Shown piece after piece: positions 35,501 to 63,523 of a stretch of 64,000 nucleotides of DNA; position 1 is the stretch's first letter; each line of letters opens with the position of its first letter. The stretch covers positions 1 through 64,000 of the forward strand of contig PALM01000046.1 of assembly GCA_002706365.1 (NCBI GenBank), in the 5' to 3' direction. The notes under the pieces are model-generated. The model saw only the letters and a program-made list of their open reading frames with translations. It had not been told where the DNA came from and made no database searches. The translations under genes were made by a program, and so were the position numbers. Source of the DNA: Flavobacteriales bacterium. Its GTDB lineage: Bacteria > Bacteroidota > Bacteroidia > Flavobacteriales_E > Vicingaceae.

Positions 35501-38500
35501 TCTGGATCATGGACCCATTTAACCCACAAGATGGAAATCCAAATCACGGTGGTGGTGAGCTTTATTTTAACTTGGGATCGGTTTCTGAAGATATCCTCAA
35601 AGACGGAAGAAAGAGTTTTGAAAATGGATTTCCTATCGATGGGTCAAATCAGAATACTGCTGCTACAATTTGGGGAAGAATCCCTACAGTGCAGTCGGTG
35701 GTGAATGCCTTCGACAACAACATTGCCTCCAGAGAGAATCAGGATATTGGATTGGATGGATTGGACGATGCTGCTGAAAGGGCATTCTTCCAGACCTATT
35801 TGAACGCACTTGCAAACATTCTATCGCCTCAAGCTCTAGCTCAGGTAAGCAATGACCCTTCAAAAGATAACTACCACTACTATCGGGGTGGTGATTATGA
35901 TGCACAGCAACTTTCTATCTTGGAACGATACAAGATGTTCAACGGACATCAAGGGAACTCTCCCACCTCAGAGCAGTCGCCTGAATCATATCCAACAGCA
36001 GCAACAACACTGCCTGATGTGGAGGATGTGAACAGAAACTTCAACCTAGATAGAACGGAAAGTTACTATCAATACCGAGTGCCACTTTCTCCAGCTCTCT
36101 TGCAGCCGAACAATGTAGGTTCGAACTATATAACCGATGTGGTTAGAGCAACCAAGAATGTGAACGGACAAACAAAAACGGTGAACTGGTATCAGTTCAA
36201 AATTCCGATCAGAGATCCTGAAAAGGTAATCGGAAACATCCGCGATTTCAAGTCGATCCGTTTCATGAGAATGTTCCTAAAAGGATTCAATGAAGATGTA
36301 GTTGTTCGATTCGCGAGATTGGGCTTGGTAAGAGGTGAATGGCGTGAGTATACAAGAGATGAAATACCATCTGGAGATACACATGGTAATGAGCCTGGTA
36401 CCACCACTTTCAATATTGGAGCGGTGAATGTGGAAGAGAACTCAAACCGTGTGCCGATCAATTATACGATCCCACCAGACATCGATAGAGAGATCGACTT
36501 TGGAACTACCAACCTCCGCCAGCTTAATGAGCAGTCATTGGTGCTTGATGTATGCGACCTTCAAGACGGTTATTCAAAATTTGCCTTCCGTTATCTAGAC
36601 CTGGATATCAGACAGTATAAAAGACTTAAAATGTATGCCCATGCAGAGGCAGGCAGCAATAATGAGCCATTGAATAATGGGGATGTGGCTATTGTGTTGA
36701 GGTTGGGAACCGATTTTGATGACAACTATTATGAATATGAAGTTCCACTTCAGGTGACTTTGCCTGGACAGAACTCTCCAGAACAAGTTTGGCCGGCATC
36801 AAATGAGATCGACCTTCAGTTAGATAAACTGATCAATGCCAAACAGAACAGGAATAGGCAAACTGTGGATCCAAATACTGGAGTAAGCATAAACACGGTC
36901 TATCAAATTCAGGATGGCAATAATGTGATTCGGGTTAGAGGTAATCCAAACCTTGCGGAAGTTAGGGTTGTGATGATTGGAGTACGGAACAGAAGAGCCG
37001 GGCCATCAAACCCTCAAGATGATGGTTTTCCTAAATGTGCAGAAGTCTGGGCAAATGAGCTCAGACTTTCCGACTTTAATAATGATGGAGGTTGGGCTGC
37101 CCAAGCTAGAGTGAACGCTCAAGTGGCTGATTTGGGTACGGTGAACCTTTCGGGAAGCATGAGTACACCTGGTTGGGGAAGTATAGAGCAGAAGCTAAAT
37201 GAGCGACAAAGAGAAACTCGTCAGCAATATGACCTATCAGCTAGTCTAGACCTAGCCAAATTCCTTCCGGATGAAGTGAATGTGAGTATACCGATGTATT
37301 ACTCTCAATCTGAGGCTGTCATTCGTCCTGAATTCAATCCTTTGGATCCGGATGTGAAGCTAAATGATCTACTGCGATCTGATGAATTCTCAAGAGACTA
37401 TAAAGATTCAATTCGAAAGATCACCGATGATTATACCAGAAGGCGAAGTATCAATTTCACCAATGTGAGAAAGCTTCCCAGCAGGAATAAGGAAAGGTCC
37501 AACTTCTACGATATTGAAAACTTCAATGTCACTTACGCTTACACAGAGATCTACAAGAGGGATGTAAACACTAAATACAATAAAACGGAGACCTACAAAG
37601 GGGCCTTGAACTACAATTACTCAGGTAAAGCCAAGAATATCCAGCCATTCCAAAATGTAAAGCTGTTTAAAGAGAACAAGGCTTTTGCGCTGCTAAGGGA
37701 TCTAAACTTCAACCCGGTACCAAGTCAGATCAGTGTACAGAATATCTTCGATAGATTCTATCAAGAAAGACAAGCGAGGAATATTACCAATAATGCGGCA
37801 AGCTCTTTTGTATTTGAATCGCCGCCATTTTATCAGAAGTCATTCAATTGGTCTAGGATCTATTCTTTGAGATACAATCCCGCTAAGTCGATCACTTTCA
37901 ACTTCAACGCAAGCAACCGCGCTTTGATCGGAGAGCCTGAGGGTAAAGTTGACCGAAGGAATAAAGATGAGTATGATCAATTCAAACAAGAGGTTTGGCA
38001 GAATATTCAAAGTTTTGGTGACAACACTCAATACAATCACAATTTTGATATCAACTACACGCTTCCGATCAATAAGATTCCGGGATTGGAGTTTATTACA
38101 GCAAGTACTAGATATTCGGCCACTTTTGCTTGGGATAGAATTGGTAACCCAGAGGCAGACACTTCTTTAGGAGCGACAATTAGAAATTCTAATACCAAAG
38201 CCTTCCAGGTGGGAATGAATATGGATGCCTTCTGGAATAAGTTTGAATACATTCGTCGATTAAAGGATCCAAGCTTCGATAATAAATACATCTACAAGGA
38301 AGAAAAGGATGAGGAGGATAAGAAGAATAAAAAGGATAAAGGAGAAGATGAAGGAGTAGGTGAGGATGTCCAAGGGGAGTCGGCCGAGAAACAGACACCT
38401 AGAAATCGAAGAGGAAACTTCGCAAACAGAAACAGAGGAGGGGCTGGAGAGTCGAGTGAAAGTGAAGAACCAGATACCAATAAGGTCAAAAAGTTCGTTC

Positions 38501-39903
38501 TGCAGCGTTATATACTTGATAATGCGATATGGACAATAATGAGTCTTAAAACGCTCTCTTTGAACTACAATGAAACCCATGGAACTATCTTACCTAACTA
38601 CGGAGAGGAAACTAATATGCTTGGTATGTCGCCAAACTGGGGAGCCCCCGGTTTTGGCTTTGTTAGCGGTATGCAAGAACCCGGAGATAGATTCTTGAAT
38701 AGGGCCTTCGAGAATGATTGGTTGGTGGATGATGGAGCATTTGTGAGTGGTGATTTCTCACGCACATACAGCAAGCAATTAAGTATGCGAGCCACACTTA
38801 GACCAATAGAGGGGCTTAGGATCCAATTAACCGCCAATAAGAACCAATCTCAAAACGTAAGCAAGTTCTTTTTCTTTGATGATGCAGACACTGTAGAGGC
38901 CTATAATTTTGATGCCCCGCAAATTGTAAGTGGTAGCTATAGCATGTCTATTCTTAGTATTGGGACATCCTTCAAGCCAACTGATGAGAATGACTTTAGT
39001 AATTCCACATTTAGCGAGCTACAGAGTGTGGAGAACAGGGAGATCATTTCCCGTAGGTTAGGTAATCGCAACATCAATTCAGGAGATTCAACTTTAGGAG
39101 AATTTGCAGAAGGATATGGTCCTACATCACAAGAAGTTCTATTATTCTCATTCCTTGCCGCCTACACAGATAAGAGTCCGAATGATGTCTTTGTTGGTGA
39201 CTTTACCAAAATGATTCCGCTTCCTAACTGGGATATAACTTACGACGGACTTTCAAGGCTCGATTTCTTCAAAAAGTACTTTAGAACAGTTACCATTCGC
39301 CATGCCTATCGTTCCACATTTGCAGTTGGGTCCTATACGCGAAACCAGCGCTTTGGTGAAGAAAATGGAGCTCCTTCAGTTAAAGATCCAAATGGGAACT
39401 TCATTACAGATAAACAGTTGTCGACTGCGAGCATATCGGAGCAATTTAGTCCTTTGATCAATTTGGATTTCACCTGGAAAAGTGGATTGCTCACAAGATT
39501 AGAGATGAGAAGGGATAGGAATATATCGCTGAGCTTTGCAAACAATCAGGTTACTGAAGTTCAAGGAAGAGAGTATATAATAGGATTGGGTTATCGACTC
39601 ACCAATTTGAAGCTGCCTTTTAAAATTGGAAAGCTAGAACGCAGCAGTGATGTGGATCTAAGAGCCGATATCTCTATTCGCGATAACCAAACTATCATTC
39701 GAAGAATAGTAGAGAATAGGAATGAATTAACAGCAGGACAAAGGATATTTACCATCAAATTCACTGCTGATTATCGCTTAAGTAACAAGTTGAATGTACA
39801 ATTGTATTACGATAGGGTAGCCAATACACCATTGATCTCTACCACTTTCCCAACTGCAAATACAAATGCGGGAATTAGATTGAGATTTACCCTTTCACAA
39901 TAG
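32512..39903 (+). CDS. sprA: SprA/Sov, type IX secretion outer-membrane translocon and gliding protein
   Basis: 2463 residues, compared with about 2400 in Flavobacterium johnsoniae. It starts at TTG, 11 bases after ruvA; no ATG gives the N-terminal signal segment (SKHYIGRRIIPLTLVGTFIG). The sequence is barrel strands throughout, with family phrases such as DNPILPERQRRTSTFDFNQ, YKYVQMLGDNDYRSP, SRAITKDGIAYIDDFEGSQ and WANELRLSDFNNDGGWAAQA, and a last strand LRFTLSQ. A Lys/Glu/Asn-rich low-complexity insert lies at about residues 1927-1990, probably a flexible loop. SprA forms the 36-strand pore through which folded cargo passes. The ruvA-sprA-gcvH order seems to be conserved in the group. Confidence 0.96.
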   Translation: MIFSKHYIGRRIIPLTLVGTFIGSLMAVNPMELSDAASNFPLPFLPDSTEEDSGDIDLIFPFDDESNEGINDKRSPLYLDDPSNVKKEFIYDPETGEYKYVQMLGDNDYRSPTTMTLDEYLEYDMEKSQRDFWRQKAAAETLNESQGFRPQINVKGELFDRIFGGNTIDIRPQGSAELSFGVNVSRRDNPILPERQRRTSTFDFNQKIQLNVIGNIGEKLKIQTNYNTEATFDFENQLKVEYTGYEDEIIQKIEAGNVNFPLQSSLITGSQTLFGVKTELQFGRLRVTTLFSQERGEKKEINITGGATVQEFEKSADDYEDNKHYFLSHLFRESYEENLSKPPRVTSRINVTAVEVYITNTQGTFNNTRNILAFTDLGTDRRIYNPGVVMKNPVENVAFNGANNLYKNLDSDYPNAQNIRNFNDADAVLQAQGLESGSDYERLENAILLSPNEYTLNPELGYISLNRTLNPQDVLAVAYRYTYNGKVYQVGDLSTDGIDGQQALYLQLLKGTIIDPSLPSWDLMMKNVYSLDAFNISAENFNFDIWYLNEETGVEIPYFPEGKNNSKPLTNVLGLDRIAITNEPTPDGQFDYLPGVTINPQNGRIYFPVLEPFGDYLRRTFDDPALADKFAFDSLYSTTKILARQDVDKNRYTFRGRYQSSSGSEISLNAFNIPQGSVTVTAGGARLTENVDYTVDYNLGRVRILNEGILASGQPIKVSLGSNSLFNVQTKTLIGSRFDYRVSDDINIGGTILNLTERPLTRKINIGDEPISNTVVGIDGSFQTEAPFLTRAADLLPFYSTKEKSVLTVTAEAARLFPGNSRAITKDGIAYIDDFEGSQTVNDIRSANAWYLASTPEGQDDLFPEGNFNNDRAYNYNRARLAWYTIDPLFFRNDNRTPSHIRNSESQSNNFSREILETEVFPNKDPEPGLINNLPTLDLAFYPNEPGPYNYDAAPTAISDGLNPDGSLATPQSRWGGIMRQIQNSDFEASNVEFIQFWIMDPFNPQDGNPNHGGGELYFNLGSVSEDILKDGRKSFENGFPIDGSNQNTAATIWGRIPTVQSVVNAFDNNIASRENQDIGLDGLDDAAERAFFQTYLNALANILSPQALAQVSNDPSKDNYHYYRGGDYDAQQLSILERYKMFNGHQGNSPTSEQSPESYPTAATTLPDVEDVNRNFNLDRTESYYQYRVPLSPALLQPNNVGSNYITDVVRATKNVNGQTKTVNWYQFKIPIRDPEKVIGNIRDFKSIRFMRMFLKGFNEDVVVRFARLGLVRGEWREYTRDEIPSGDTHGNEPGTTTFNIGAVNVEENSNRVPINYTIPPDIDREIDFGTTNLRQLNEQSLVLDVCDLQDGYSKFAFRYLDLDIRQYKRLKMYAHAEAGSNNEPLNNGDVAIVLRLGTDFDDNYYEYEVPLQVTLPGQNSPEQVWPASNEIDLQLDKLINAKQNRNRQTVDPNTGVSINTVYQIQDGNNVIRVRGNPNLAEVRVVMIGVRNRRAGPSNPQDDGFPKCAEVWANELRLSDFNNDGGWAAQARVNAQVADLGTVNLSGSMSTPGWGSIEQKLNERQRETRQQYDLSASLDLAKFLPDEVNVSIPMYYSQSEAVIRPEFNPLDPDVKLNDLLRSDEFSRDYKDSIRKITDDYTRRRSINFTNVRKLPSRNKERSNFYDIENFNVTYAYTEIYKRDVNTKYNKTETYKGALNYNYSGKAKNIQPFQNVKLFKENKAFALLRDLNFNPVPSQISVQNIFDRFYQERQARNITNNAASSFVFESPPFYQKSFNWSRIYSLRYNPAKSITFNFNASNRALIGEPEGKVDRRNKDEYDQFKQEVWQNIQSFGDNTQYNHNFDINYTLPINKIPGLEFITASTRYSATFAWDRIGNPEADTSLGATIRNSNTKAFQVGMNMDAFWNKFEYIRRLKDPSFDNKYIYKEEKDEEDKKNKKDKGEDEGVGEDVQGESAEKQTPRNRRGNFANRNRGGAGESSESEEPDTNKVKKFVLQRYILDNAIWTIMSLKTLSLNYNETHGTILPNYGEETNMLGMSPNWGAPGFGFVSGMQEPGDRFLNRAFENDWLVDDGAFVSGDFSRTYSKQLSMRATLRPIEGLRIQLTANKNQSQNVSKFFFFDDADTVEAYNFDAPQIVSGSYSMSILSIGTSFKPTDENDFSNSTFSELQSVENREIISRRLGNRNINSGDSTLGEFAEGYGPTSQEVLLFSFLAAYTDKSPNDVFVGDFTKMIPLPNWDITYDGLSRLDFFKKYFRTVTIRHAYRSTFAVGSYTRNQRFGEENGAPSVKDPNGNFITDKQLSTASISEQFSPLINLDFTWKSGLLTRLEMRRDRNISLSFANNQVTEVQGREYIIGLGYRLTNLKLPFKIGKLERSSDVDLRADISIRDNQTIIRRIVENRNELTAGQRIFTIKFTADYRLSNKLNVQLYYDRVANTPLISTTFPTANTNAGIRLRFTLSQ

Positions 39904-52975: not shown

Positions 52976-55852
52976 ATGACTTCATCGCCTTTTAGCAGCA
53001 GACACATTGGTCTATCAGAAGAAGATATCAAGGAAGCCCTAAAAACCATTGGAGAGGATAGTATTGAATCGCTTATTGCGAAAACGATTCCACAATCAAT
53101 TCGTTTGAAAGAGCCTTTGAAATTGGAAGCTCCTTATAGTGAGTATCAGTACTTGAATAGGATCAAGGAGATTGCTCATAAGAATCAAGTATTCAAGAGT
53201 TATATTGGTTTAGGTTATTACAACACCAAAGTGCCTTCTGTGATTCAGAGAAACATTTTTGAGAATCCGGGATGGTATACTGCGTACACTCCTTATCAGG
53301 CAGAGATTGCACAAGGTAGATTAGAGGCCTTGTTGAACTTCCAGACCATGGTTACCGATCTAACAGCTATGGATATTGCCAATGCTTCCCTTTTGGATGA
53401 AGCTACCGCCGTTGCTGAAGGTATGAGTATGATGTTGGCATCTCGTTCACGCGAGATGAAGAAAGCAGGAGTAAATAAATTCTTTGTGGCTAGCGATTGC
53501 TTTCCACAGACTCTAGATGTCTTAAAAACTAGAAGTAAGCCAATAGGAGTTGAATTGATCATCGCCGATCCTGAAACTTATGATTTTAGCGATGATTTCT
53601 TCGGCGTATTCTTGCAGTATCCTAATGTGAATGGAAAGGTTTACGATTATTCCAACTTTATTGAAAAGGCGCATGAAAAAGGAGCCTTGGTTGGTGTAGC
53701 TGCCGACTTAATGAGTTTGGCTATGCTGAAGCCTCCTGGAGAATGGGGTGCAGATGTAGTTTGTGGAACCACTCAAAGATTCGGTATTCCAATGGGCTTT
53801 GGCGGTCCACATGCAGCCTACTTTGCAACTAGAGATGCCTTTAAAAGGAATGTTCCGGGAAGGATTATTGGCTTGTCGGTAGATGCAGATGGAAAAGCTG
53901 CTTTGAGAATGGCACTGCAAACAAGAGAGCAGCACATTAAAAGAGATAGAGCCACTTCTAATATCTGTACTGCTCAGGTACTATTAGCTGTTATGGCTGG
54001 AATGTATGCGGTTTATCACGGTAAGGATGGTATAAGCAGAATTTCTAGAGGAATTCACGCATATACTCATCAATTACATCTGGCAGTTGAAAGTTTGGGC
54101 TATGAGGTGAAGGAAGATCAGTATTTTGATACTCTTCATATAGGATTAGATGGCAAGGCCGATGAGATCATGGAGTTTGCCAGAGAGAGAATGATCAACT
54201 TTAGAAAGGTTGATGATAATTCTATTTGTGTGAGTTTGAATGAGTCGGTTGAATTGCATGAGCTTAATAATCTCATCAATTTATTTGCTGATTTCAAAAA
54301 GAAAGAAATCTCAGAAGTAGAGAAAGTAACTGAAGAGAGTCCGCTGAAGCAGGAAGTATTGCGCTCAAGTAGCTTCCTCACACATCCGGTATTCAATAGA
54401 TATCAGACAGAGACTGAAATGATGCGCTATATCAAGCGTTTAGAGAATAAAGACTTCTCATTGGTTCACGGTATGATTCCATTGGGATCATGTACCATGA
54501 AGTTGAATGCAGCTACTGAACTAATGCCATTGAGTTGGCCTGAGTTTGGCAATATTCACCCATTTGCCCCTAAGGAACAGGTGAGTGGATACTATGAAAT
54601 GATCAATGAGCTTGAGAGGGATCTTTCAGAAATTACGGGTTTCCACAAAGTTTCATTGCAGCCAAATTCCGGAGCACAAGGAGAGTACGCCGGATTAATG
54701 GTGATTCGAGCGTATCATGAGCACAATGGGGATGAGCATAGAAATATTGCTTTGATCCCTTCATCGGCTCATGGAACCAATCCAGCTTCAGCTGTAATGG
54801 CGGGAATGGATGTAGTGGTAGTAAAATGTGATGAGGCAGGTAATATCGATCTAGAGGACCTTGAACAAAAGGCCAATGAGCACAGCGAGAATCTTGCTGC
54901 TTTAATGATCACTTACCCTTCTACTCATGGAGTATTCGAAGAAGATGTAGTGAAGATCACCCAGATCATTCATCAGCATGGCGGACAAGTATATATGGAT
55001 GGAGCGAATATGAATGCGCAGGTTGGATTGACGAATCCTGCGAACATTGGAGCTGATGTTTGTCACTTGAATCTGCATAAGACCTTTGCCATTCCTCATG
55101 GAGGTGGCGGACCTGGAATGGGACCTATTGGGGTAGCAGAGCATCTTGCACCTTTCTTGCCATCCAATCCAATTGTGAAGACAGGTGGAGATCATGCGAT
55201 CACATCTATTTCAGCAGCTCCATTTGGAAGCTCACTTGTCTTGATCATTTCGCATGCCTACATTAAAATGCTTGGCGAAGAAGGATTGAGAAAATCGACT
55301 GAGACAGCGATCTTAAGTGCCAATTATATCAAGAAGAGACTGGAAGGTAACTATAATATACTCTATCAAGGGAAGAATAATACGGTGGCTCACGAGATGA
55401 TCCTCGATTGTCGTCATTTCAAACAAGATATTGGCATTGAAGTAGTGGATATTGCCAAGAGATTGATCGATTATGGATTTCACGCTCCAACGGTTTCTTT
55501 CCCAGTAAATGACACATTGATGGTAGAGCCAACGGAAAGTGAAAGCTTGGTGGAGTTGGATCGATTCATCGATGCCATGTTGAAGATCAGAGAAGAGATT
55601 GGTGAAATAGAGTCTGGGGAGTCTGATAGACAGAACAATGTGTTGAAGAATGCACCTCATACAGAGCTCTTGATAACTGCCGATGAGTGGAATTTGCCTT
55701 ACAGTAGAAAGAAGGCCGCTTATCCATTAGATTCAATTATGGGTAATAAGTTCTGGGCTGCAGTAAGAAGGGTCGATAATGCGTTTGGCGACAGAAATCT
55801 CATTTGTAGCTGTCCGCCTATCTCCGAATATGAGACAGCAGACTTGGGATAA
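52976..55852 (+). CDS. gcvP: Glycine dehydrogenase (decarboxylating), P protein of glycine cleavage, fused type
   Basis: 958 residues, both P1 and P2 halves in one chain. N-terminal FSSRHIGLSEEDIKEALKTI and the phrase FKSYIGLGYYNTKVPSVI mark the P1 half. The second half has MIPLGSCTMKLNAATELMPL, LQPNSGAQGEYAGLMVIRAY and the PLP-lysine loop CHLNLHKTFAIPHGGGGPGM. It decarboxylates glycine and loads the aminomethyl group on GcvH. Confidence 0.97.
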   Translation: MTSSPFSSRHIGLSEEDIKEALKTIGEDSIESLIAKTIPQSIRLKEPLKLEAPYSEYQYLNRIKEIAHKNQVFKSYIGLGYYNTKVPSVIQRNIFENPGWYTAYTPYQAEIAQGRLEALLNFQTMVTDLTAMDIANASLLDEATAVAEGMSMMLASRSREMKKAGVNKFFVASDCFPQTLDVLKTRSKPIGVELIIADPETYDFSDDFFGVFLQYPNVNGKVYDYSNFIEKAHEKGALVGVAADLMSLAMLKPPGEWGADVVCGTTQRFGIPMGFGGPHAAYFATRDAFKRNVPGRIIGLSVDADGKAALRMALQTREQHIKRDRATSNICTAQVLLAVMAGMYAVYHGKDGISRISRGIHAYTHQLHLAVESLGYEVKEDQYFDTLHIGLDGKADEIMEFARERMINFRKVDDNSICVSLNESVELHELNNLINLFADFKKKEISEVEKVTEESPLKQEVLRSSSFLTHPVFNRYQTETEMMRYIKRLENKDFSLVHGMIPLGSCTMKLNAATELMPLSWPEFGNIHPFAPKEQVSGYYEMINELERDLSEITGFHKVSLQPNSGAQGEYAGLMVIRAYHEHNGDEHRNIALIPSSAHGTNPASAVMAGMDVVVVKCDEAGNIDLEDLEQKANEHSENLAALMITYPSTHGVFEEDVVKITQIIHQHGGQVYMDGANMNAQVGLTNPANIGADVCHLNLHKTFAIPHGGGGPGMGPIGVAEHLAPFLPSNPIVKTGGDHAITSISAAPFGSSLVLIISHAYIKMLGEEGLRKSTETAILSANYIKKRLEGNYNILYQGKNNTVAHEMILDCRHFKQDIGIEVVDIAKRLIDYGFHAPTVSFPVNDTLMVEPTESESLVELDRFIDAMLKIREEIGEIESGESDRQNNVLKNAPHTELLITADEWNLPYSRKKAAYPLDSIMGNKFWAAVRRVDNAFGDRNLICSCPPISEYETADLG

Positions 55853-55955
55853 ACAAATTTTCTAGGTTAATTATTCTTTAAATTATTTTCAGAATTTTAA
55901 CATTATGCTTATTTTTATAAGCTGATAACAAATTGTTTAACTAAAATTTTTTACA

Positions 55956-57929
55956 ATGAAGAAGAATTACGCCTTACTTACGGGTCTAATTTTGATGTCA
56001 TCTGTTGGTTTTTCTCAGAGCTTGATCGGCAATGCCCAAGCAGAAGAAGGAACCCCAAGATTGACTCAAGGAGTTAAAGCGCCATTGGCGAAAAAGACTC
56101 CACAAAAAGCATTCCGTGACACCATTTTATATGAAGATTTTGCTGGTGCACTTCCTGCTGGATGGACAGTATCAAATAATGCTAGTAACGGTAATGACTG
56201 GGTATGGGCTGCTGGTGCGACTGCTCCAGGTGGACAGTACTCAACAAACACCGCTGCTTTAAGCTCAACATCATCAGCTAACGGTTATATGATGTTGCCT
56301 GCTGACTTTTACAATACTCCATTCCCTCCGGGTGGACCAATAGGGATGGATACATGGTTTTCATCTCCATCATTTTCTATGAACCCGGTTGTGAACTCAG
56401 TAATCATCAAGTTTGAGCACTCTCAGCGTTACTGCTGTAACGCAGCTAATGATCTGGTATTGGAAGTTAGTTCTGATAACATCAACTGGACTACGTTTGA
56501 TGCAACTGGAGGAAGATCTCCAAACACTGCAACTCCAAACGGAGAAGAGTTGACTATTAATGTTTCTGCTGTTTTGGCTAACCAAACAACAGGATATTTG
56601 AGATTCAGATCAACTGGTAACTCTCACTACTACTGGATGATTGATGATATCTTGGTTTACCAAGGTCCAGGAAACTCATTTGAGTTAGAGAACTTCGATA
56701 TTGCGTTTAACCCAACATTCGATATTCGCCCAATTTATACTATCATCCCTCAGTCTAACATGCCGCCGGCAACTTACACTGGTTTCACTTGGAACTACGG
56801 TGGATTCGATCAAACTAATTCTACATTTAATGTAGATGCGATCATGGATTCTGCTATTGGTGGTGGTGCAGGAACAGGATTGGCTTATTCAGCTTCTACT
56901 GGTTTCGGTACAGTTCTTTCACTTGAAAGAGATACTGTATCTGTTACTGCTCCATTCTTTACGTTTGCTCCAGGATGGTACAGACAAAGAATGTATATTA
57001 CTAGTGATTCAGTTAGTCAACTTCCTGCAATTGCAGAAGATAACTACACACTAGCAATCACATTGGATTCTACTATCGCATTGGATAATGGTGAAGCTGC
57101 ATTCGCAAGTAATGCTACTGCAGGACCTCCAGGTTACGTAGGTGGTGGAAATGATGGTGACAGAATCGGTGTATTGATGATCATCGACTCTACACTTAAT
57201 CCTAATGGTGTAATGGCTACTTCTGTTAGCTATTGGATGCCAAGAGTTCGTCAAACTGAACTTCACGGTCTTCAAATCTCACCAAGAGTATGGCCTTTCC
57301 ACGAGGATTCAGCTTCTCTTCAGAATGCTGTTCGTCCAGCAGTGGCTCAGTCGCCATTCTCAATCACTCTTGATACTTGTAACGCAACTTGTCCTGGTAC
57401 ATCTACTGTTGGACAGTGGATCACAGTTCCATTCTTCCCTCCAACAATGCTTACTCCAGGTGCTTACCTATTTGGTCTTGAGCAAACTGGTGGTGCTGCT
57501 AATGGTAAGGAGCTTTGGGCTGGTAGAGACGTTGCTCAAGAGAGCATTGCTCCAGTTTTCTCTAACATTCAGTTCATCAACGAAGCTGGTAACGGTAGAT
57601 GGATTTCTAACCTAGTTATTACTGGTATCCGTTTCAACGGACAGTTCGCTGTTGGAATTGAAGATCAAGCAGAGGAAGCTAAGGTAGATTTCAATGTGTA
57701 TCCTAACCCTAACAATGGTTTGTTCACAATGAAAGTATCTAGCAATGTTGCTACAACTTATACTATGAACGTAAGAAACATGGTAGGTCAAACAGTAATG
57801 TCTGAGGCTATCAACGTTAATGGTAACACAGTGAAGCAAATGGATCTTACTTCATTCGACAAAGGAGTTTATTTTGTAACTCTTGAGAACGGAGAAGACA
57901 GACTAGTAAGAAAAGTAGTTGTGAAGTAA
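55956..57929 (+). CDS. Type IX secretion cargo protein, tandem paralogue 1
   Basis: 657 residues. Signal peptide, then a cleaved-adhesin (choice-of-anchor J, jelly-roll) domain: DTILYEDFAGALPAGWTVSN, NGYMMLPADFY and YYWMIDDILVYQ. A vicinal cysteine pair C160-C161 stands in SQRYCCNAANDLVLEVS. A second beta region has GPPGYVGGGNDGDRIGV and DTCNATCPGTSTVGQW. The C-terminal sorting domain is FNVYPNPNNGLFTMKVSSN up to RKVVVK. The codons look more uniform (AAC, GGT) than in paralogues 2 and 3, hinting at strong expression. It has its own terminator. Confidence 0.9.
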   Translation: MKKNYALLTGLILMSSVGFSQSLIGNAQAEEGTPRLTQGVKAPLAKKTPQKAFRDTILYEDFAGALPAGWTVSNNASNGNDWVWAAGATAPGGQYSTNTAALSSTSSANGYMMLPADFYNTPFPPGGPIGMDTWFSSPSFSMNPVVNSVIIKFEHSQRYCCNAANDLVLEVSSDNINWTTFDATGGRSPNTATPNGEELTINVSAVLANQTTGYLRFRSTGNSHYYWMIDDILVYQGPGNSFELENFDIAFNPTFDIRPIYTIIPQSNMPPATYTGFTWNYGGFDQTNSTFNVDAIMDSAIGGGAGTGLAYSASTGFGTVLSLERDTVSVTAPFFTFAPGWYRQRMYITSDSVSQLPAIAEDNYTLAITLDSTIALDNGEAAFASNATAGPPGYVGGGNDGDRIGVLMIIDSTLNPNGVMATSVSYWMPRVRQTELHGLQISPRVWPFHEDSASLQNAVRPAVAQSPFSITLDTCNATCPGTSTVGQWITVPFFPPTMLTPGAYLFGLEQTGGAANGKELWAGRDVAQESIAPVFSNIQFINEAGNGRWISNLVITGIRFNGQFAVGIEDQAEEAKVDFNVYPNPNNGLFTMKVSSNVATTYTMNVRNMVGQTVMSEAINVNGNTVKQMDLTSFDKGVYFVTLENGEDRLVRKVVVK

Positions 57930-57955
57930 TTCACACTCACTAGATAAATAAAGGA

Positions 57956-57983
57956 CCCCTTGGCATCGCCAAGGGGTTTTTTT
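57956..57983 (+). terminator. Rho-independent terminator after paralogue 1
   Basis: CCCCTTGGC-ATC-GCCAAGGGG followed by seven T. A 9-bp GC-rich stem with a three-base loop. Confidence 0.93.
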
Positions 57984-58041
57984 ATGCCTATTTTTTAGTA
58001 GGAATAGTTGAAACAATATGAAATCATAAAAAATGCTTAAT

Positions 58042-58058
58042 TTTTTACAGCTGTTTAA
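58042..58058 (+). promoter_or_regulatory. Leader motif TTTTTACAGCTGTTTAA before paralogue 2
   Basis: One base different from the motif at 9375-9391 before actA. The GTTTAACTAA that ends it is also found before paralogue 1 (55934-55943). Paralogue 3 lacks it. Confidence 0.35.
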
Positions 58059-58073
58059 CTAATTCCATTCACT

Positions 58074-60008
58074 ATGAAGAATAGCTACCTCTTCAGCCTG
58101 CTGCTTATATTTTTTGCACTTCCGGCCTTTTCTCAATTTGCAAATTCAAATGTAGCAGAGCCTATTCTGCGAGTACAAGAAGATAGTCCAATAGCTAAGA
58201 AACATACTTCAAAAGCCTATTTAGATACTATTCTTTACGAAGATTTTGATGGATCTATTCCCACAGGATGGACTGTTTCAAATCCCGCCAATAATGGCAA
58301 TGATTGGATTTGGGTAGCAGGGAATACACCTCCAGGTGGACAGTATTCAACAACTGCTTTACCACTGAATTCAACTTCAGCAGCCAATGGCTATATGATG
58401 TTGCCTTCCGACTTCTATAACACACCTTTTCCACCGAATGGCCCTGTGGCAATGAATACTTGGTTTACCTCTTCGGCATTTTCTATACCCTCAGGTGCAG
58501 GATCCATTCTTGTGAAGTACGAGCATTCTATACGCTATTGTTGTAGTTCAACAAACGACCTGGTGTTAGAAGTAAGCACTGATAGTATAAATTGGGTGAC
58601 ATTTGAAGCCAATGGATTCCGAAATCCTTCGACAGCTAGCCCTAATGGAGAAGTTATGGAGATCAATGTGTCTTCTGTTTTGGGAAATCAGACAAGTGGA
58701 TATTTGCGATTTAGATCTACTGGGAATGTCAGTTTTTATTGGATGATCGATGATATTTTAGTCTTTGAAGGACCGCGCAACAATATGCGATTAACAGATT
58801 TTGAGATCGATTTTCATTCTGCTGATCCAATTTCACCCATCTACACCATTATTCCTCAGGCTTTGTTAACTCCAGTAAGCTATAGCGGGATCACTTTAAA
58901 CAATGGTGGAAATACCCAAACCAATGTAGAATTTAAATTGGATGTCTTTATGGACTCAACTATTGGAGGTGGTCCAGGAACTGGAATCGTACATGCAGAT
59001 AGCGACCCCATAGGCACAGTATTGACTCGCGAAATAGATACGTCTTTAATAGCTAATTCATTCTATACTTTCAATCCTGGATGGTATAGAAGTAGGATAT
59101 ATGTTAGCTCTGATTCAGTAAATCAGTTACCACAGTCCGCTGAAGCAAATTATACTTTGGCAGTTACTCAAGATAGTGTGGTGGCATTGGATGGAGGAGC
59201 TGCAGCATTTGGGAATGCCACCTTGGGGCCTGCTGGATATGTTGGTGGTGGAAACATAGGCGATCGTATAACAGCAGCGGTAATAATAGGGCCTAATGTG
59301 TCAAATGTGACAGCTACATCAGTAAGTTATTGGGTACCGAGAAATCGTCCTGAAGTAGATGATTTAGCACTTGTGCCAAAACTTTATTCCTTTAACCCTA
59401 ATGTATCTACTTTAGACTCTGCACTAACAGAGATTCCTACAACCGCATCTGCAGTGGTAATTGATACTTGTACTGCTTGTCCAAACCCAATGGTTGGTGA
59501 GTGGGTTACTTTGCCTTTTAGTAGTCCCGTAAATTTAAACCCTGGAGCATATTATTTCGGTATTGAACAAACAGGAGGAGCTTCTAGTGAATTGTGGTTA
59601 GGTTGGGACATTAACCAACAACTCATTGCCAGAACCTTCTCTAACATCATGTTTCTCAATGAGCCTGGAAATGCAAGGTGGATAAGTAATCACGTAATTA
59701 CAGGTCTTCGCTTGAATGTGAATTATCCTGTTGGTATTGAGGAAAGCAATTCAATTGAAGCTTCAGATCTAAAGATCATGCCCAATCCAAATACAGGCAT
59801 TTTTACGATCAGTCTTGAGAATCAATCAAGAGGGTCATATCAGCTCAAGATCAACAATAGTATTGGACAAGCTGTGCTTTCAGAAACCATTAATGTAAAT
59901 GGTGATTTTGTAAAACAGTTGGACTTAACAGCCTTTGATAAGGGAATCTACTTTATTTCAATTGAGAATGGAGAGGAGAGACTAGTGAAGAAAGTAGTTG
60001 TAAAATAG
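58074..60008 (+). CDS. Type IX secretion cargo protein, tandem paralogue 2
   Basis: 644 residues with the same architecture as its upstream neighbour: signal peptide ending ALPAFSQ, jelly-roll DTILYEDFDGSIPTGWTVSN, vicinal pair C156-C157 in SIRYCCSSTNDLVLEVS, second beta region with GPAGYVGGGNIGDRI and DTCTACPNP, sorting domain MPNPNTGIFTISLEN to KKVVVK. By eye it is closer to paralogue 1 than to 3 in the first domain, while the sorting domain is closer to 3. It has its own leader after the terminator of paralogue 1, and only 37 bases separate it from paralogue 3. Confidence 0.9.
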   Translation: MKNSYLFSLLLIFFALPAFSQFANSNVAEPILRVQEDSPIAKKHTSKAYLDTILYEDFDGSIPTGWTVSNPANNGNDWIWVAGNTPPGGQYSTTALPLNSTSAANGYMMLPSDFYNTPFPPNGPVAMNTWFTSSAFSIPSGAGSILVKYEHSIRYCCSSTNDLVLEVSTDSINWVTFEANGFRNPSTASPNGEVMEINVSSVLGNQTSGYLRFRSTGNVSFYWMIDDILVFEGPRNNMRLTDFEIDFHSADPISPIYTIIPQALLTPVSYSGITLNNGGNTQTNVEFKLDVFMDSTIGGGPGTGIVHADSDPIGTVLTREIDTSLIANSFYTFNPGWYRSRIYVSSDSVNQLPQSAEANYTLAVTQDSVVALDGGAAAFGNATLGPAGYVGGGNIGDRITAAVIIGPNVSNVTATSVSYWVPRNRPEVDDLALVPKLYSFNPNVSTLDSALTEIPTTASAVVIDTCTACPNPMVGEWVTLPFSSPVNLNPGAYYFGIEQTGGASSELWLGWDINQQLIARTFSNIMFLNEPGNARWISNHVITGLRLNVNYPVGIEESNSIEASDLKIMPNPNTGIFTISLENQSRGSYQLKINNSIGQAVLSETINVNGDFVKQLDLTAFDKGIYFISIENGEERLVKKVVVK

Positions 60009-60045
60009 AATCTATCAATTTCATTATTGACCAAATTATTACCAT

Positions 60046-62016
60046 ATGAAGAAACTTTACTTACTACCTATTGCCATATTATTTTTTTTCGGATCGTTTT
60101 CGCAATCCATTCAGGATACGCAGTTGAACCATCCTTATATGGGAAGCGAACTTAATTCAAACTCTAAAAGGCCTACACAGAAAGCATATTTGGACACCCT
60201 TTTCTATGAGGATTTCGATAGTTTGTCTGCTTTGAATTGGACGATAGTGAACTCGTCAACTGGCGGCCCATTTGGGCCTGCTGCTGAGCCATGGAAATGG
60301 GTGCCGGCAGGAAGCAGACCTGGGCCATTAGCTCCCACTGCTGGACCCTTGCAGTCAACGTCTAGTATGAATGGATATATGTATTTAGCTCCTGATTCAA
60401 CAGTGACTTTTGTTCCTACTCCTTTTGACACATATTTTACATCGAATGCAATTTCAATAAACCCATCTGTTGCATCGGTTATAGTGAGATTTGAGCAATC
60501 ACAACTATATTGTTGTGGTGGCAACAATGATCTCCTTTTAGAAGTTAGTACGGATAGTTTTAGCTGGACAAGCTTTGATGCAACTAATGGTCGGAACCCA
60601 AGCATCATCTCACCAAATGCAGAAGTCCTAGAAATAAATGTTTCTTCTGTCTTAGCGAATGCCACAACTGCCTATGTCCGTTTTCGAGCTACTGGAATGG
60701 TTGCTTACTATTGGATGATTGATGATTTGCTGATCTATGAAGGTCCTTCAAATAACATGCAATTGAAGGATGTTGACTTGAGTTTTAAAAACTCTAATTT
60801 TTCCTCAGTTGTGGATCCGGTGTATACAATAATTCCCAATGCTTTATTCAATAGCCTCAATTTTATAGGCTACACCTTTAACTATGGAGCAAATCCGCAA
60901 ACTAATGTAAGTTTTAATACAAGTGTTTTTATGGATTCTACCGTAAATGGGAATCCAGGTTCAGGACTTGTTTACTCAAGTAGCAGTCTCATAGGGACAG
61001 TTCAAAGCTTGGAAGCTGATACTGTAACTATTAGTCCCTCTTTTCAATCAACTAGCTCTAATCCAACTGCTCCTGGTTATTATCGTGCAGTAATGTCGGT
61101 TTCTTCAGACTCTATTAATCAACAAGCAAATAGTGCAAAGATGGAGTATGAATTTTTACTCAGTTCTGCATCAGATACCGTGATCGCCTTGGATCGTGGA
61201 GCTGCATTTTTTACTCAGATTTCTGGGCCTGCAGCATATGTTGGAGGGGGAAATGATGGTGATGTAATTGGAGTTGCACTGAATATTGACTCGGCCACTT
61301 CCTTTAGTTTGCTTGCAACTTCCTTATCGTATTGGGTGCCAAACTACGGTACATCTGCAAGTTGGACTCAAACATTATCGCCAAGGATTTGGAGAGTTAA
61401 TCCCGCTGCAACATCATTGAATACTTTACCTACTCCATATGCTCAATCATCTGCATCGATTTCAATAAATCCTATTAATAATCCTGCTATATTGGGGACT
61501 TGGGTTACAGTTCCTTTCTTTCCGCCTGCTGCTCTTAATCCTGGTGAGTCCTATTATTTTGGAATTGAGCAAACTGGAGGTGCCGCAAGTGGAGCAGAAT
61601 TGTGGGCTGGGAGAGATGTCGGACAAGAAAAGTACAATAATGTATTCTCCAATGTGTTCTTTTTAAATGAACCTGCAAATGGAAGATGGATTGCTACTGA
61701 TGAGATCCTAGGAGTTCGTTTGAATGTTCAACTGACTGTTGGTGTTGAGGAATCTTCTTCCTCTGAGAGTTCAGCTTTTAGAATCATGCCCAACCCAAAT
61801 ACCGGTTTGTTTCGCATAAGTCTAATGAACCAAGTAAAAGGCAACTATAATCTCAAGGTGTTCAATAACCTTGGACAAACTGTGCTTGCAGAGTCAATAA
61901 ATGTGAACGGTGAATTCACCAAACAAATCGACTTATCATCCTTTGATAAGGGAATCTACTTTATTTCAATTGAGAATGGAGAAAGCCGAATGGTGGAGAA
62001 GGTGGTAGTGAAGTAG
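60046..62016 (+). CDS. Type IX secretion cargo protein, tandem paralogue 3
   Basis: 656 residues. Signal peptide ending FGSFSQ; jelly-roll DTLFYEDFDSLSALNWTIVN; vicinal pair C156-C157 in SQLYCCGGNNDLLLEVS; GPAAYVGGGNDGDVIGV; sorting domain MPNPNTGLFRISLMN to EKVVVK. The second Cys cluster of paralogues 1 and 2 (DTC-x-CP) is missing and reads SINPINNPAILGTW. The gene probably shares a transcript with paralogue 2. It ends two bases before the convergent mlaF. Confidence 0.9.
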   Translation: MKKLYLLPIAILFFFGSFSQSIQDTQLNHPYMGSELNSNSKRPTQKAYLDTLFYEDFDSLSALNWTIVNSSTGGPFGPAAEPWKWVPAGSRPGPLAPTAGPLQSTSSMNGYMYLAPDSTVTFVPTPFDTYFTSNAISINPSVASVIVRFEQSQLYCCGGNNDLLLEVSTDSFSWTSFDATNGRNPSIISPNAEVLEINVSSVLANATTAYVRFRATGMVAYYWMIDDLLIYEGPSNNMQLKDVDLSFKNSNFSSVVDPVYTIIPNALFNSLNFIGYTFNYGANPQTNVSFNTSVFMDSTVNGNPGSGLVYSSSSLIGTVQSLEADTVTISPSFQSTSSNPTAPGYYRAVMSVSSDSINQQANSAKMEYEFLLSSASDTVIALDRGAAFFTQISGPAAYVGGGNDGDVIGVALNIDSATSFSLLATSLSYWVPNYGTSASWTQTLSPRIWRVNPAATSLNTLPTPYAQSSASISINPINNPAILGTWVTVPFFPPAALNPGESYYFGIEQTGGAASGAELWAGRDVGQEKYNNVFSNVFFLNEPANGRWIATDEILGVRLNVQLTVGVEESSSSESSAFRIMPNPNTGLFRISLMNQVKGNYNLKVFNNLGQTVLAESINVNGEFTKQIDLSSFDKGIYFISIENGESRMVEKVVVK

Positions 62017-62018
62017 AG

Positions 62019-62777
62019 CTACTTGGTATGCACTTTTCGCAGCTGTTTCATAAGATCCGAGGCAAATACTAGATCGGCGAGTTCCTTACTTGTGGTGCTG
62101 TAGATATTGTCTTTAGTGCCTTCCCATTCATTTTTGCCTTTGTAGATAAAAAGTACTTTATCCCCAATCTCCAATACAGAGTTCATATCGTGAGTGATCA
62201 CGATGGTAGTGATCTGATTTTCATAAGTGATCTCCTGGATCAGATTGTCGATTAATACCGCTGTAGCCGGATCCAAACCTGAATTTGGTTCATCGCAAAA
62301 GAGATATTTTGGATTTAATGAAATGGCTCTAGCAATACCAACTCGCTTCTGCATACCACCGCTGATCTCTCCAGGGTATTTGTCCTCTGCATTGATCAGA
62401 TTCACCCTTTTAAGGCATTCATTCACTCGATCATCCATTTCCTCATTGCTCATCTTAGAATGCATCTGAAGAGGGAATTTTACATTCTCAGCCACTGTCA
62501 TGGAATCGAATAATGCACCTCCCTGAAATAGCATGCCTATTTCTTTACGAACTTCCTTTCTTTCATCAAGACTCATGGCTGTGAAATCTTGTCCATCGTA
62601 GATCACTGAACCACTATCTGGTTCAATGAGGCCAACAGTGCATTTAGTCAAGACCGATTTACCACTTCCACTTGCACCAATGATCAGATTGGTCTTACCA
62701 CGTTCATAATTGATGCTGATGTTGTCAATTACTTTATGATCACCGAAAGATTTGGATATGTTCTTTAATTCTATCAT
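62019..62777 (-). CDS. mlaF: MlaF-like ABC transporter ATP-binding protein
   Basis: 252 residues. Walker A IIGASGSGKSVLTK (GASGSGKS at 34-41), signature YPGEISGGMQKRVGIARAI, Walker B KYLFCDEPNSGLDP and the switch TTIVITHDMNSVLEIGD. The SGGM form of the signature is typical of the Mla/Ttg2 group. With MlaE it moves phospholipids between the membranes. It starts five bases after mlaE. The MCE protein MlaD is not in the window. Confidence 0.93.
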   Translation of the reverse strand: MIELKNISKSFGDHKVIDNISINYERGKTNLIIGASGSGKSVLTKCTVGLIEPDSGSVIYDGQDFTAMSLDERKEVRKEIGMLFQGGALFDSMTVAENVKFPLQMHSKMSNEEMDDRVNECLKRVNLINAEDKYPGEISGGMQKRVGIARAISLNPKYLFCDEPNSGLDPATAVLIDNLIQEITYENQITTIVITHDMNSVLEIGDKVLFIYKGKNEWEGTKDNIYSTTSKELADLVFASDLMKQLRKVHTK

Positions 62778-62782
62778 GCTAA

Positions 62783-63523
62783 CTAGATCAAAAGAACTTG
62801 AGTGATCAAATAGTTCACGATTAGAATGACAATACTACTTGCCACCACACCTTGCGTGCTTGCTTTTCCAACTGCTAGCGCTCCTCCTCTTACTGTATAT
62901 CCAAAAAAGGCTGGAATAGAAGTGATGATAAAGGCAAAAAAGACTGTTTTTATAAGTGCATAGGTCACACTGAAGAAATCAAAGTCGAACTGAGCTCCAT
63001 AAACATATGCTTCGGGAGTGATCGCGCTGGAAAACATCGCTACAAGATAACCTCCATACATCCCAATGAACATACTCCAAATAATGAGAAAAGGGTTGAT
63101 CACCACAGCGGCAATGATCTTAGGGATGATCAAAAAAGAGGCAGAATTGATCCCCATGATCTCCAAGGCATCGATCTGCTCGGTAACTCTCATCAATCCG
63201 ATTTCCGAAGTGATGTTGGAACCCACTTTACCTGCTAAGATGAGTGCAATGATCGTGGGGGAGAATTCAAGGATAATTGATTGTCGGGCTGTAAAACCAA
63301 CAGTATATGCAGGAATCAAGGCGCTATCGATATTGGAGGCTGTTTGCAGGGTGATTACCGCTCCCATAAAAACCGAGATAATGGTAATGATCCCAAAGGA
63401 ACCTAACCCAAGGCTGTCCATTTCTTTCACCACCTCTCTCCAGATCAAAGATCTTTTGGTTGGTCGCTGAAATGCTCTGCCAATCAAGATAAAATACTCG
63501 CCTGTCTTGCCAAAAAAGGACAT
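62783..63523 (-). CDS. mlaE: MlaE-like phospholipid-transport permease
   Basis: 246 residues with about five membrane helices. The family phrases are GLGSFGIITIISVFMGAVIT, LEFSPTIIALILAGKVGSNI, TSEIGLMRVTEQIDALEIMG and PKIIAAVVINPFLIIWSMF. It forms the membrane domain of the Mla complex. First gene of a two-gene operon, divergent from the tRNA. Confidence 0.95.
   Translation of the reverse strand: MSFFGKTGEYFILIGRAFQRPTKRSLIWREVVKEMDSLGLGSFGIITIISVFMGAVITLQTASNIDSALIPAYTVGFTARQSIILEFSPTIIALILAGKVGSNITSEIGLMRVTEQIDALEIMGINSASFLIIPKIIAAVVINPFLIIWSMFIGMYGGYLVAMFSSAITPEAYVYGAQFDFDFFSVTYALIKTVFFAFIITSIPAFFGYTVRGGALAVGKASTQGVVASSIVILIVNYLITQVLLI

What the first reader, a model, noticed from the sequence alone, without database searches (positions are those of the whole stretch)
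55956..62016. Three tandem T9SS cargo paralogues with a conserved vicinal CC
About 6 kb is given to three proteins of 644-657 residues with the same layout. All keep a YCC pair (C160-161, C156-157, C156-157) in the jelly-roll domain; paralogue 3 has lost a second Cys cluster. The sorting domains of 2 and 3 resemble each other more than that of 1, while the first domains of 1 and 2 are closer, suggesting local gene conversion. Paralogue 1 has its own terminator and apparently optimised codons.
Basis: partly seen in the sequence, partly recalled or inferred. Interest (0 to 1): 0.55.

Follow-up and report, generated by a model that had tools for sequence, protein, structure and literature searches.

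The report
Abundant secreted adhesin-like gene array
A row of related genes makes secreted, jelly-roll-shaped proteins that all carry the same rare pair of neighbouring cysteines; the first gene looks built for very high output while its neighbours look like low-output variants, and related bacteria keep this arrangement at the same chromosomal spot.

Summary
Three intact T9SS cargo genes (657, 644, 656 aa) share a vicinal CC at the stated residues. The CC is not chance: it is present in 48 of 55 full-length relatives, always both cysteines or neither, and is the only cysteine pair conserved in the family. Within-array mosaicism is real, but only the sorting domains of 2 and 3 show a recent-conversion-like tract (43 identical nt; 0 of 10,000 shuffles). 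Corrections: the second Cys pair is confined to paralogues 1 and 2, more likely a gain than a loss in 3; the closer J domains of 1 and 2 show no silent-site signal of conversion. Paralogue 1 has the fourth-highest codon adaptation of 326 sampled ORFs. In 15 of 15 genomes the codon-biased CC gene sits beside gcvP. In 11 of 11 arrays it comes first, is the most codon-adapted member and has a terminator. In 10 of 20 testable relatives without it, the slot holds an unrelated, codon-biased T9SS cargo. Best reading: a major exported jelly-roll adhesin/lectin-like protein plus minor variants; CC as ligand-loop vicinal disulfide is inferred.

The parts
52976..55852 (+). gcvP (glycine dehydrogenase), the gene always directly upstream of the major gene
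   Evidence: homologue beside the major CC gene in 15 of 15 genomes
55909..55918 (+). Bacteroidota -7-like element upstream of paralogue 1 (inferred; motif recalled)
   Evidence: read from sequence; similar TTATCTTTA-like text precedes the other major genes
55932..55946 (+). conserved 15-mer leader ATTGTTTAACTAAAA, 9 nt before the ATG
   Evidence: only exact site in the own genome; exact at the major gene in 13 of 15 genomes, G033 and G036 slightly off
55956..57929 (+). paralogue 1, the major gene: signal peptide, CC jelly-roll domain, middle region, type A sorting domain
   Evidence: CAI 0.782, rank 4 of 326
56121..56669 (+). jelly-roll (MAM / cleaved-adhesin-like, choice-of-anchor J) domain of paralogue 1
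   Evidence: NF038128 32.2 bits; model pLDDT 66.9, best Foldseek hits gingipain K1 and K3
56433..56438 (+). vicinal CC codons of paralogue 1 (C160-C161)
57378..57392 (+). second Cys pair of paralogue 1 (C475, C479); shared only with paralogue 2
   Evidence: 2 of 55; positions
57696..57926 (+). T9SS sorting domain of paralogue 1
   Evidence: its CTD groups with those of other species' first genes
57955..57977 (+). intrinsic terminator after paralogue 1 (bidirectional stem)
58051..58065 (+). degenerate copy of the leader upstream of paralogue 2
   Evidence: read
58074..60008 (+). paralogue 2, minor
   Evidence: CAI 0.577
58539..58544 (+). vicinal CC codons of paralogue 2 (C156-C157)
59932..59974 (+). 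43-nt tract in paralogue 2 identical to paralogue 3
   Evidence: 0 of 10,000 shuffles, whole gene and CTD only
60046..62016 (+). paralogue 3, minor; starts 37 nt after paralogue 2, probably co-transcribed with it
   Evidence: CAI 0.568
60511..60516 (+). vicinal CC codons of paralogue 3 (C156-C157)
61940..61982 (+). partner of the 43-nt tract in paralogue 3
62019..63523 (-). convergent ABC ATPase and permease pair (mlaF/mlaE-like, name recalled) that bounds the array
   Evidence: homologues flank the array in 7 loci

Best explanation
The array encodes one major and two minor T9SS-exported proteins. Paralogue 1 appears to be made at ribosomal-protein-like level from its own promoter and conserved leader, and a strong terminator limits read-through; paralogues 2 and 3 are weakly expressed, diversified versions from a second, weaker start. 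Each protein is cleaved by signal peptidase before Gln, crosses the periplasm, is exported by the T9SS through its sorting domain, and displays or releases an N-terminal MAM/cleaved-adhesin-like jelly-roll domain. In that domain the CC sits in the hairpin loop just after a long strand and most likely closes on itself as a vicinal disulfide. This would make a rigid apolar contact in a ligand (probably glycan) binding rim, with the family-specific neighbours Q155, R158 and Y159. Shown: gene structure, sorting domain, fold assignment, CC conservation, codon bias, terminator, synteny. Inferred: actual protein level, disulfide state, ligand, and surface attachment versus release.
For: CC in 48 of 55 full-length relatives, both or none; 0 of 52 control choice-of-anchor J domains have CC; class-wide 24 of 64 sampled loci have CC and none has a single Cys there; all 69 CC rows fall in one 80-row clade (SH-aLRT 95), minimum 5 changes vs 35.7 in shuffles. 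All 15 major genes have CC. No other conserved Cys exists to pair with. Codon adaptation: top of 49 window genes, 4 of 326; the first gene has the highest CAI and lowest Nc in 11 of 11 arrays. Terminator after the major gene in 10 of 11 by scan and in the eleventh by reading. gcvP synteny 15 of 15. SprA of the T9SS is encoded in the same window. Q21 is invariant in 55 of 55, as expected under the Q-rule (PMC5837995, abstract and outline read). Fold: gingipain K1/K3 and meprin MAM. Precedent: in Bacteroides SusD Bt1762 the vicinal disulfide C298-C299 contacts the glycan branch and C298A abolishes binding in vitro (PMC7782687, passages); vicinal disulfides can bind sugar rings (PMC12102755, passages).
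Against: No protein-level or redox data. The J-domain model is mediocre (pLDDT 66.9) and the CC loop is among its least certain parts (under 50). A class-wide sister group does without CC, with a shorter hairpin, so CC is not needed for the fold or export. The own genome has no VKOR-family match; DsbA/DsbB were not searched, so an oxidising periplasm is not shown. CAI for other genomes used this genome's ribosomal weights (Nc agrees). The sugar ligand rests on analogy.
Confidence: 0.5

Rival explanations
1. The two cysteines form inter-chain disulfides, cross-linking the abundant protein into a covalent coat or fibre.
For: Very high predicted output, loop position of the CC, no other Cys partner.
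Against: Inter-chain linkage needs only one Cys; strict both-or-none conservation, 48 both, 0 single, 7 none and 0 single in 64, favours a bond or site that needs both.
Confidence: 0.2
2. The CC binds a metal or acts as a thiol redox switch at the cell surface.
For: Paired cysteines next to conserved R158 and Q155 could ligate soft metals.
Against: No conserved His or other Cys stands out among the columns conserved at 80% or more in the J domain; no metal-dependent relative was found.
Confidence: 0.1
3. The followers are recombination donors that vary the expressed first gene, as in antigenic variation systems.
For: Mosaic arrays with opposite domain divergence in different genomes; 43-nt tract between 2 and 3; 6 of 38 within-array pairs vs 4 of 200 between-species pairs have runs of 38 nt or more.
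Against: In this array the long tract joins the two followers, not follower and major gene; the major gene's sorting domain groups with other species' first genes; the followers keep complete ORFs, signal peptides and sorting domains, which silent cassettes would not need.
Confidence: 0.1
4. Ordinary lineage-specific expansion of a T9SS cargo without a special role for CC; CC is only a structural hairpin brace.
For: The genome has 103 sorting-domain matches, so expansions are expected; CC-less relatives keep the domain.
Against: CC outlasts divergence to about 22-30% identity and is specific to one clade; syntenic and expression features are too constant for incidental expansion.
Confidence: 0.15

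Closest known systems
Gingipain cleaved-adhesin domains K1/K3 of Kgp (PDB 4itc, 3m1h)
   Same: Best Foldseek hits of the J model (E 3e-7 and 5e-7), VIA-align Z 12.0 and 11.7; sequence profile match E 4e-6 for 3m1h; T9SS-delivered adhesin modules; mosaic variation is known there (PMC5266723, passages)
   Different: About 15-20% identity; 3m1h shows no CC at the hairpin in the aligned text; no protease here; separate tandem genes
NCBIfam NF038128 choice-of-anchor J domain
   Same: Paralogue 1 passes the cut-off
   Different: Only 11 of 55 relatives match even at E 0.01; 0 of 52 control J domains carry CC
SusD-like Bt1762 of Bacteroides thetaiotaomicron
   Same: Bacteroidota surface glycan binder with a functional vicinal disulfide (PMC7782687)
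   Different: Different fold (recalled); not compared by sequence here; analogy of mechanism only
Major/minor fimbrial subunit operons (recalled)
   Same: First gene highly expressed, terminator after it, low-level variants downstream
   Different: No pilin features were sought; these proteins are T9SS cargo

Membership tests
T9SS type A cargo | C-terminal sorting domain TIGR04183 / PF18962 above cut-off | tested here: met
   44.2, 37.6, 44.2 bits vs 23; Pfam 50.3, 50.5, 54.4 vs 27
T9SS type A cargo | N-terminal signal peptide | tested here: inconclusive
   Hydrophobic leader ending F-S-Q read directly; Q21 invariant in 55 of 55; no signal-peptide program was run
T9SS type A cargo | T9SS translocon in the same genome | tested here: met
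   SprA, 2628.7 bits vs cut-off 200, at window 32740-39894
T9SS type A cargo | Actual secretion or surface display | not testable with these tools
   needs proteomics
choice-of-anchor J (NF038128) | score above curated cut-off | tested here: inconclusive
   paralogue 1 passes (32.2 vs 30), 2 does not (17), 3 no match
MAM / cleaved-adhesin jelly-roll fold | fold match of the domain | tested here: met
   Foldseek E 3e-7, prob 1.00; VIA-align Z 12.0-12.4 over 152-157 residues, from a model of moderate confidence
vicinal-disulfide proteins | disulfide between sequence neighbours | not testable with these tools
   CC present and conserved, oxidation state unknown
vicinal-disulfide glycan binders | the disulfide contacts a bound sugar | not testable with these tools
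   analogy only
silent-cassette antigenic variation | donor copies incomplete or unexpressed, recombining into one expressed copy | tested here: not met
   followers in the window are complete; the main tract is between followers; expression itself was not measured

The most novel reading that the evidence does not exclude
The site directly downstream of gcvP is a conserved 'major secreted protein' slot in this bacterial family: the slot, its high output and its T9SS destination persist while the occupant is swapped between unrelated cargo families. When the CC jelly-roll family occupies it, the locus keeps one expressed major gene plus low-expressed, recombining variants, and the CC forms a ligand-binding vicinal disulfide on the most abundant exported protein of these cells.
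Probability: 0.35. Interest if true: 0.7.

Novelty: new variant of a known kind. Interest (0 to 1): 0.52.

Why it matters
It points to a probably very abundant, uncharacterised exported protein of a whole bacterial family. It gives a testable rule (first gene major, terminator, minor variants) and a conserved chemical feature (CC) that could be a recurrent ligand-binding device on T9SS jelly-roll domains. The swapped occupant of the gcvP slot would be a way to find the major exported protein of a genome by position alone.

Tried and rejected
Full-length structure prediction from the three window sequences gave pLDDT 44.1 and was not used. A viral-contig scan with the family alignment found no relative. 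The genome-contig scan with P0002 found only sorting-domain matches. The idea that the 15-mer leader marks a regulon: the own genome has one exact site; among 31 exact sites in 60 genomes, 13 are at major CC genes, some others precede HU-, GldM- and isocitrate-dehydrogenase-like genes (names recalled from their sequences), and the reversed control pattern gives 10, so a strong-expression leader is likelier than a dedicated regulon. Long identical runs as proof of conversion in every array: rejected, since 26 of 200 between-species pairs also reach the shuffle floor (vs 8 of 38 within arrays); only runs of 38 nt or more separate the sets (6 of 38 vs 4 of 200). Middle region (about residues 239-560): no domain passes a cut-off in the window proteins and none recurs in the family; left unassigned. 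Families absent from the fold lists are not claimed absent.

Rows dropped: 17 of 72 matching ORFs outside 580-720 aa were left out of the family alignment; 18 of 70 control J loci could not be read in one frame at the match, and of the 52 used one (L124) looks wrongly framed and L172 had two open frames. The controls were not sampled evenly: they are the 30 loci returned plus 40 rows picked from the list. In one search five loci were left out as duplicates of family rows, of which L227 was not a true duplicate; L239 repeats L237. The 40 extra loci were picked from the list. My first terminator scan missed the window's own terminator because it let the stem take the T run; the corrected scan is. 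G011's slot protein was not scanned (G020's near-identical one was). Literature searches: vicinal disulfide, choice-of-anchor J (41, 83), T9SS tandem paralogues (73), T9SS codon usage (95), T9SS gene conversion (96); none of their listings showed this family by title or abstract start; open-access papers only.
Full report
OBSERVATION. The three ORFs are present, intact and of the stated lengths, with CC at 160-161, 156-157 and 156-157. Each ends in a T9SS type A sorting domain above cut-off. The genome encodes SprA inside the same window and has 103 sorting-domain matches. A fourth full-length paralogue lies at G000:C6:25810-27660, 37% identical.

CC IS SELECTED. Searching 60 genomes (own plus relatives) with the paralogue 1 core found matches in 26. 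From fetched loci, 72 ORFs matched; the 55 of 580-720 aa were aligned. CC is present in 48 of 55, both cysteines or neither (7 have none), and no other cysteine column holds more than 10 of 55. Of 52 readable control choice-of-anchor J domains from the same genomes (70 fetched), none contains CC. CC is not exclusive: long multidomain proteins in G003, G006 and G008 also carry CC at what looks like the same hairpin. Class-wide, 118 of 395 genomes have a J-domain match at E 1e-15. Of 64 loci examined (5 repeat rows already counted), 24 have CC and 40 have a CC-less hairpin, mostly a few residues shorter; none has a single Cys. On a 114-row tree built without the hairpin, all 69 CC rows lie in one 80-row clade (SH-aLRT 95) and CC needs at least 5 changes, against 35.7 in shuffles. 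One origin with a few losses fits; the quick tree does not prove it.

SECOND CYS PAIR. It is found only in paralogues 1 and 2 of the 55 at those columns, so a gain in their line (or spread between them) is simpler than a loss in 3.

MOSAICISM. Domain-wise identities differ (J 0.68/0.54/0.55; CTD 0.50/0.50/0.68 for 1-2/1-3/2-3) and site patterns are heterogeneous. The CTDs of 2 and 3 share a 43-nt identical run not reached in 10,000 whole-gene or CTD-only codon shuffles, with 4-fold silent identity 8/15; J-domain pairs are at background (1-2 13/45, 2-3 5/29). The CTD of paralogue 1 groups with CTDs of other species' first genes, while 2 and 3 group together (SH-aLRT 95). Other arrays show the same patchwork in different directions: G023 has J 0.30 but CTD 0.92; G010 has J about 0.6 but middle as low as 0.24. 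Short identical runs are not diagnostic, because 26 of 200 between-species pairs also reach the shuffle floor (within arrays 8 of 38); runs of 38 nt or more are 6 of 38 within arrays and 4 of 200 between.

EXPRESSION. With weights from this genome's ribosomal-protein region, paralogue 1 has CAI 0.782, the highest of 49 window genes and above all but one of the 28 reference genes; 2 and 3 have 0.577 and 0.568. Among 326 ORFs of 120 aa or more in 483 kb it ranks fourth, after three that look like ribosomal L13, a peroxiredoxin and EF-G (names recalled from sequence). In 11 arrays that have a strongly biased gene and at least one follower, the first gene in transcription order has the highest CAI and the lowest Nc in 11 of 11. 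CAI there uses this genome's weights; Nc is reference-free. The G023, G035 and G045 pairs, and the second loci of G001, G003 and G015, do not have a single outstanding gene.

CONTROL ELEMENTS. A strong terminator follows the major gene in 10 of 11 arrays by scan, with 0 or 1 of 200 shuffles scoring, and in the eleventh (G026) by reading the sequence, where the follower ORF as listed starts inside it. A 15-mer leader ends 4-10 nt before the ATG of the major gene, exact in 13 of 15 genomes and slightly off in G033 and G036. The own genome has one exact site. Paralogue 2 has a degenerate copy; paralogue 3 starts 37 nt after paralogue 2 and probably shares its transcript. In Flavobacterium johnsoniae, whose phylum lacks Shine-Dalgarno sequences, adenines upstream of the start favour initiation (PMC6847099, abstract and passages), which fits a strong-initiation leader.

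FIXED LOCUS AND SWAPPED OCCUPANT. A gcvP homologue lies beside the major gene in 15 of 15 genomes. G001's two loci end at contig ends and probably form one five-gene array (inference). Of 22 family genomes without the major gene, 21 have gcvP and 20 show the downstream side (G035 is cut). In 10 of these 20 the next gene is a same-strand secreted-looking protein of 325-426 aa with CAI above and Nc below its own gcvP in 10 of 10. Nine of the 10 were scanned and all 9 pass the sorting-domain cut-off (G011's near-copy of G020's was not scanned). The paralogue 1 core had no match at 1e-6 in 9 of these 10 genomes and only one, on another contig, in G031, so the occupants are unrelated outside the sorting domain at that sensitivity. 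The other 10 of 20 have something else there.

FOLD AND MECHANISM. The J model (three window sequences, pLDDT 66.9, pTM 0.71) matches gingipain K1/K3 domains (E 3e-7 and 5e-7) and MAM domains of meprin (Z 12.4). CC lies just after a long strand, in the low-confidence loop before the next strand. Family-specific conserved neighbours include Q155 (36 of 45 core rows; 1 of 52 controls), R158 (41; 5), N120 (43; 0) and M228 (45; 0). A vicinal disulfide is the most economical reading of two adjacent cysteines kept both-or-none with no other partner, and such rings contact sugars in known proteins, including a Bacteroidota glycan receptor. Oxidation state, ligand and location are inferred.

VERDICT. 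It is a conserved, probably abundant, uncharacterised T9SS jelly-roll protein family with a clade-defining CC and a major-plus-minor gene arrangement at a fixed site. It is a new variant of known kinds (T9SS cargo, cleaved-adhesin-like domains), not a new kind of system.

Noticed in passing
gcvP-downstream slot: L280, L282, L283, L284, L285, L288, L291, L292, L293, L295: In 10 of 20 testable family genomes without the CC major gene, the position after gcvP holds a different, strongly codon-biased T9SS cargo.
   Followed up: partly
window 55932-55946 and the same position in 14 related genomes: Near-invariant 15-mer leader before the major gene; the same text at a similar distance also precedes HU-, GldM- and isocitrate-dehydrogenase-like genes in other genomes.
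   Followed up: partly
G000:C6:25810-27660 (L061 5802-7691): Fourth full-length paralogue with CC; its neighbourhood is shared with loci of G003 and G015, so a second old locus exists.
   Followed up: partly
L078 residues 697, 1267, 1556; L077 and L081 near residues 111-116: CC at apparently the same hairpin in jelly-roll-like domains of long multidomain proteins.
   Followed up: no
L317 7346-9334 and 9434-11569 (G000:C30): Two adjacent genes with sorting-domain matches and high codon adaptation (0.762, 0.746); the first overlaps a choice-of-anchor J hit.
   Followed up: no
class-wide loci, e.g. G124:C2 (L233, L254) and G023 (L069): CC-type and CC-less hairpin paralogues lie within a few kb of each other in several genomes, suggesting paired types.
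   Followed up: no
window 32512-39903: SprA, the T9SS translocon, lies about 16 kb upstream of the array.
   Followed up: no
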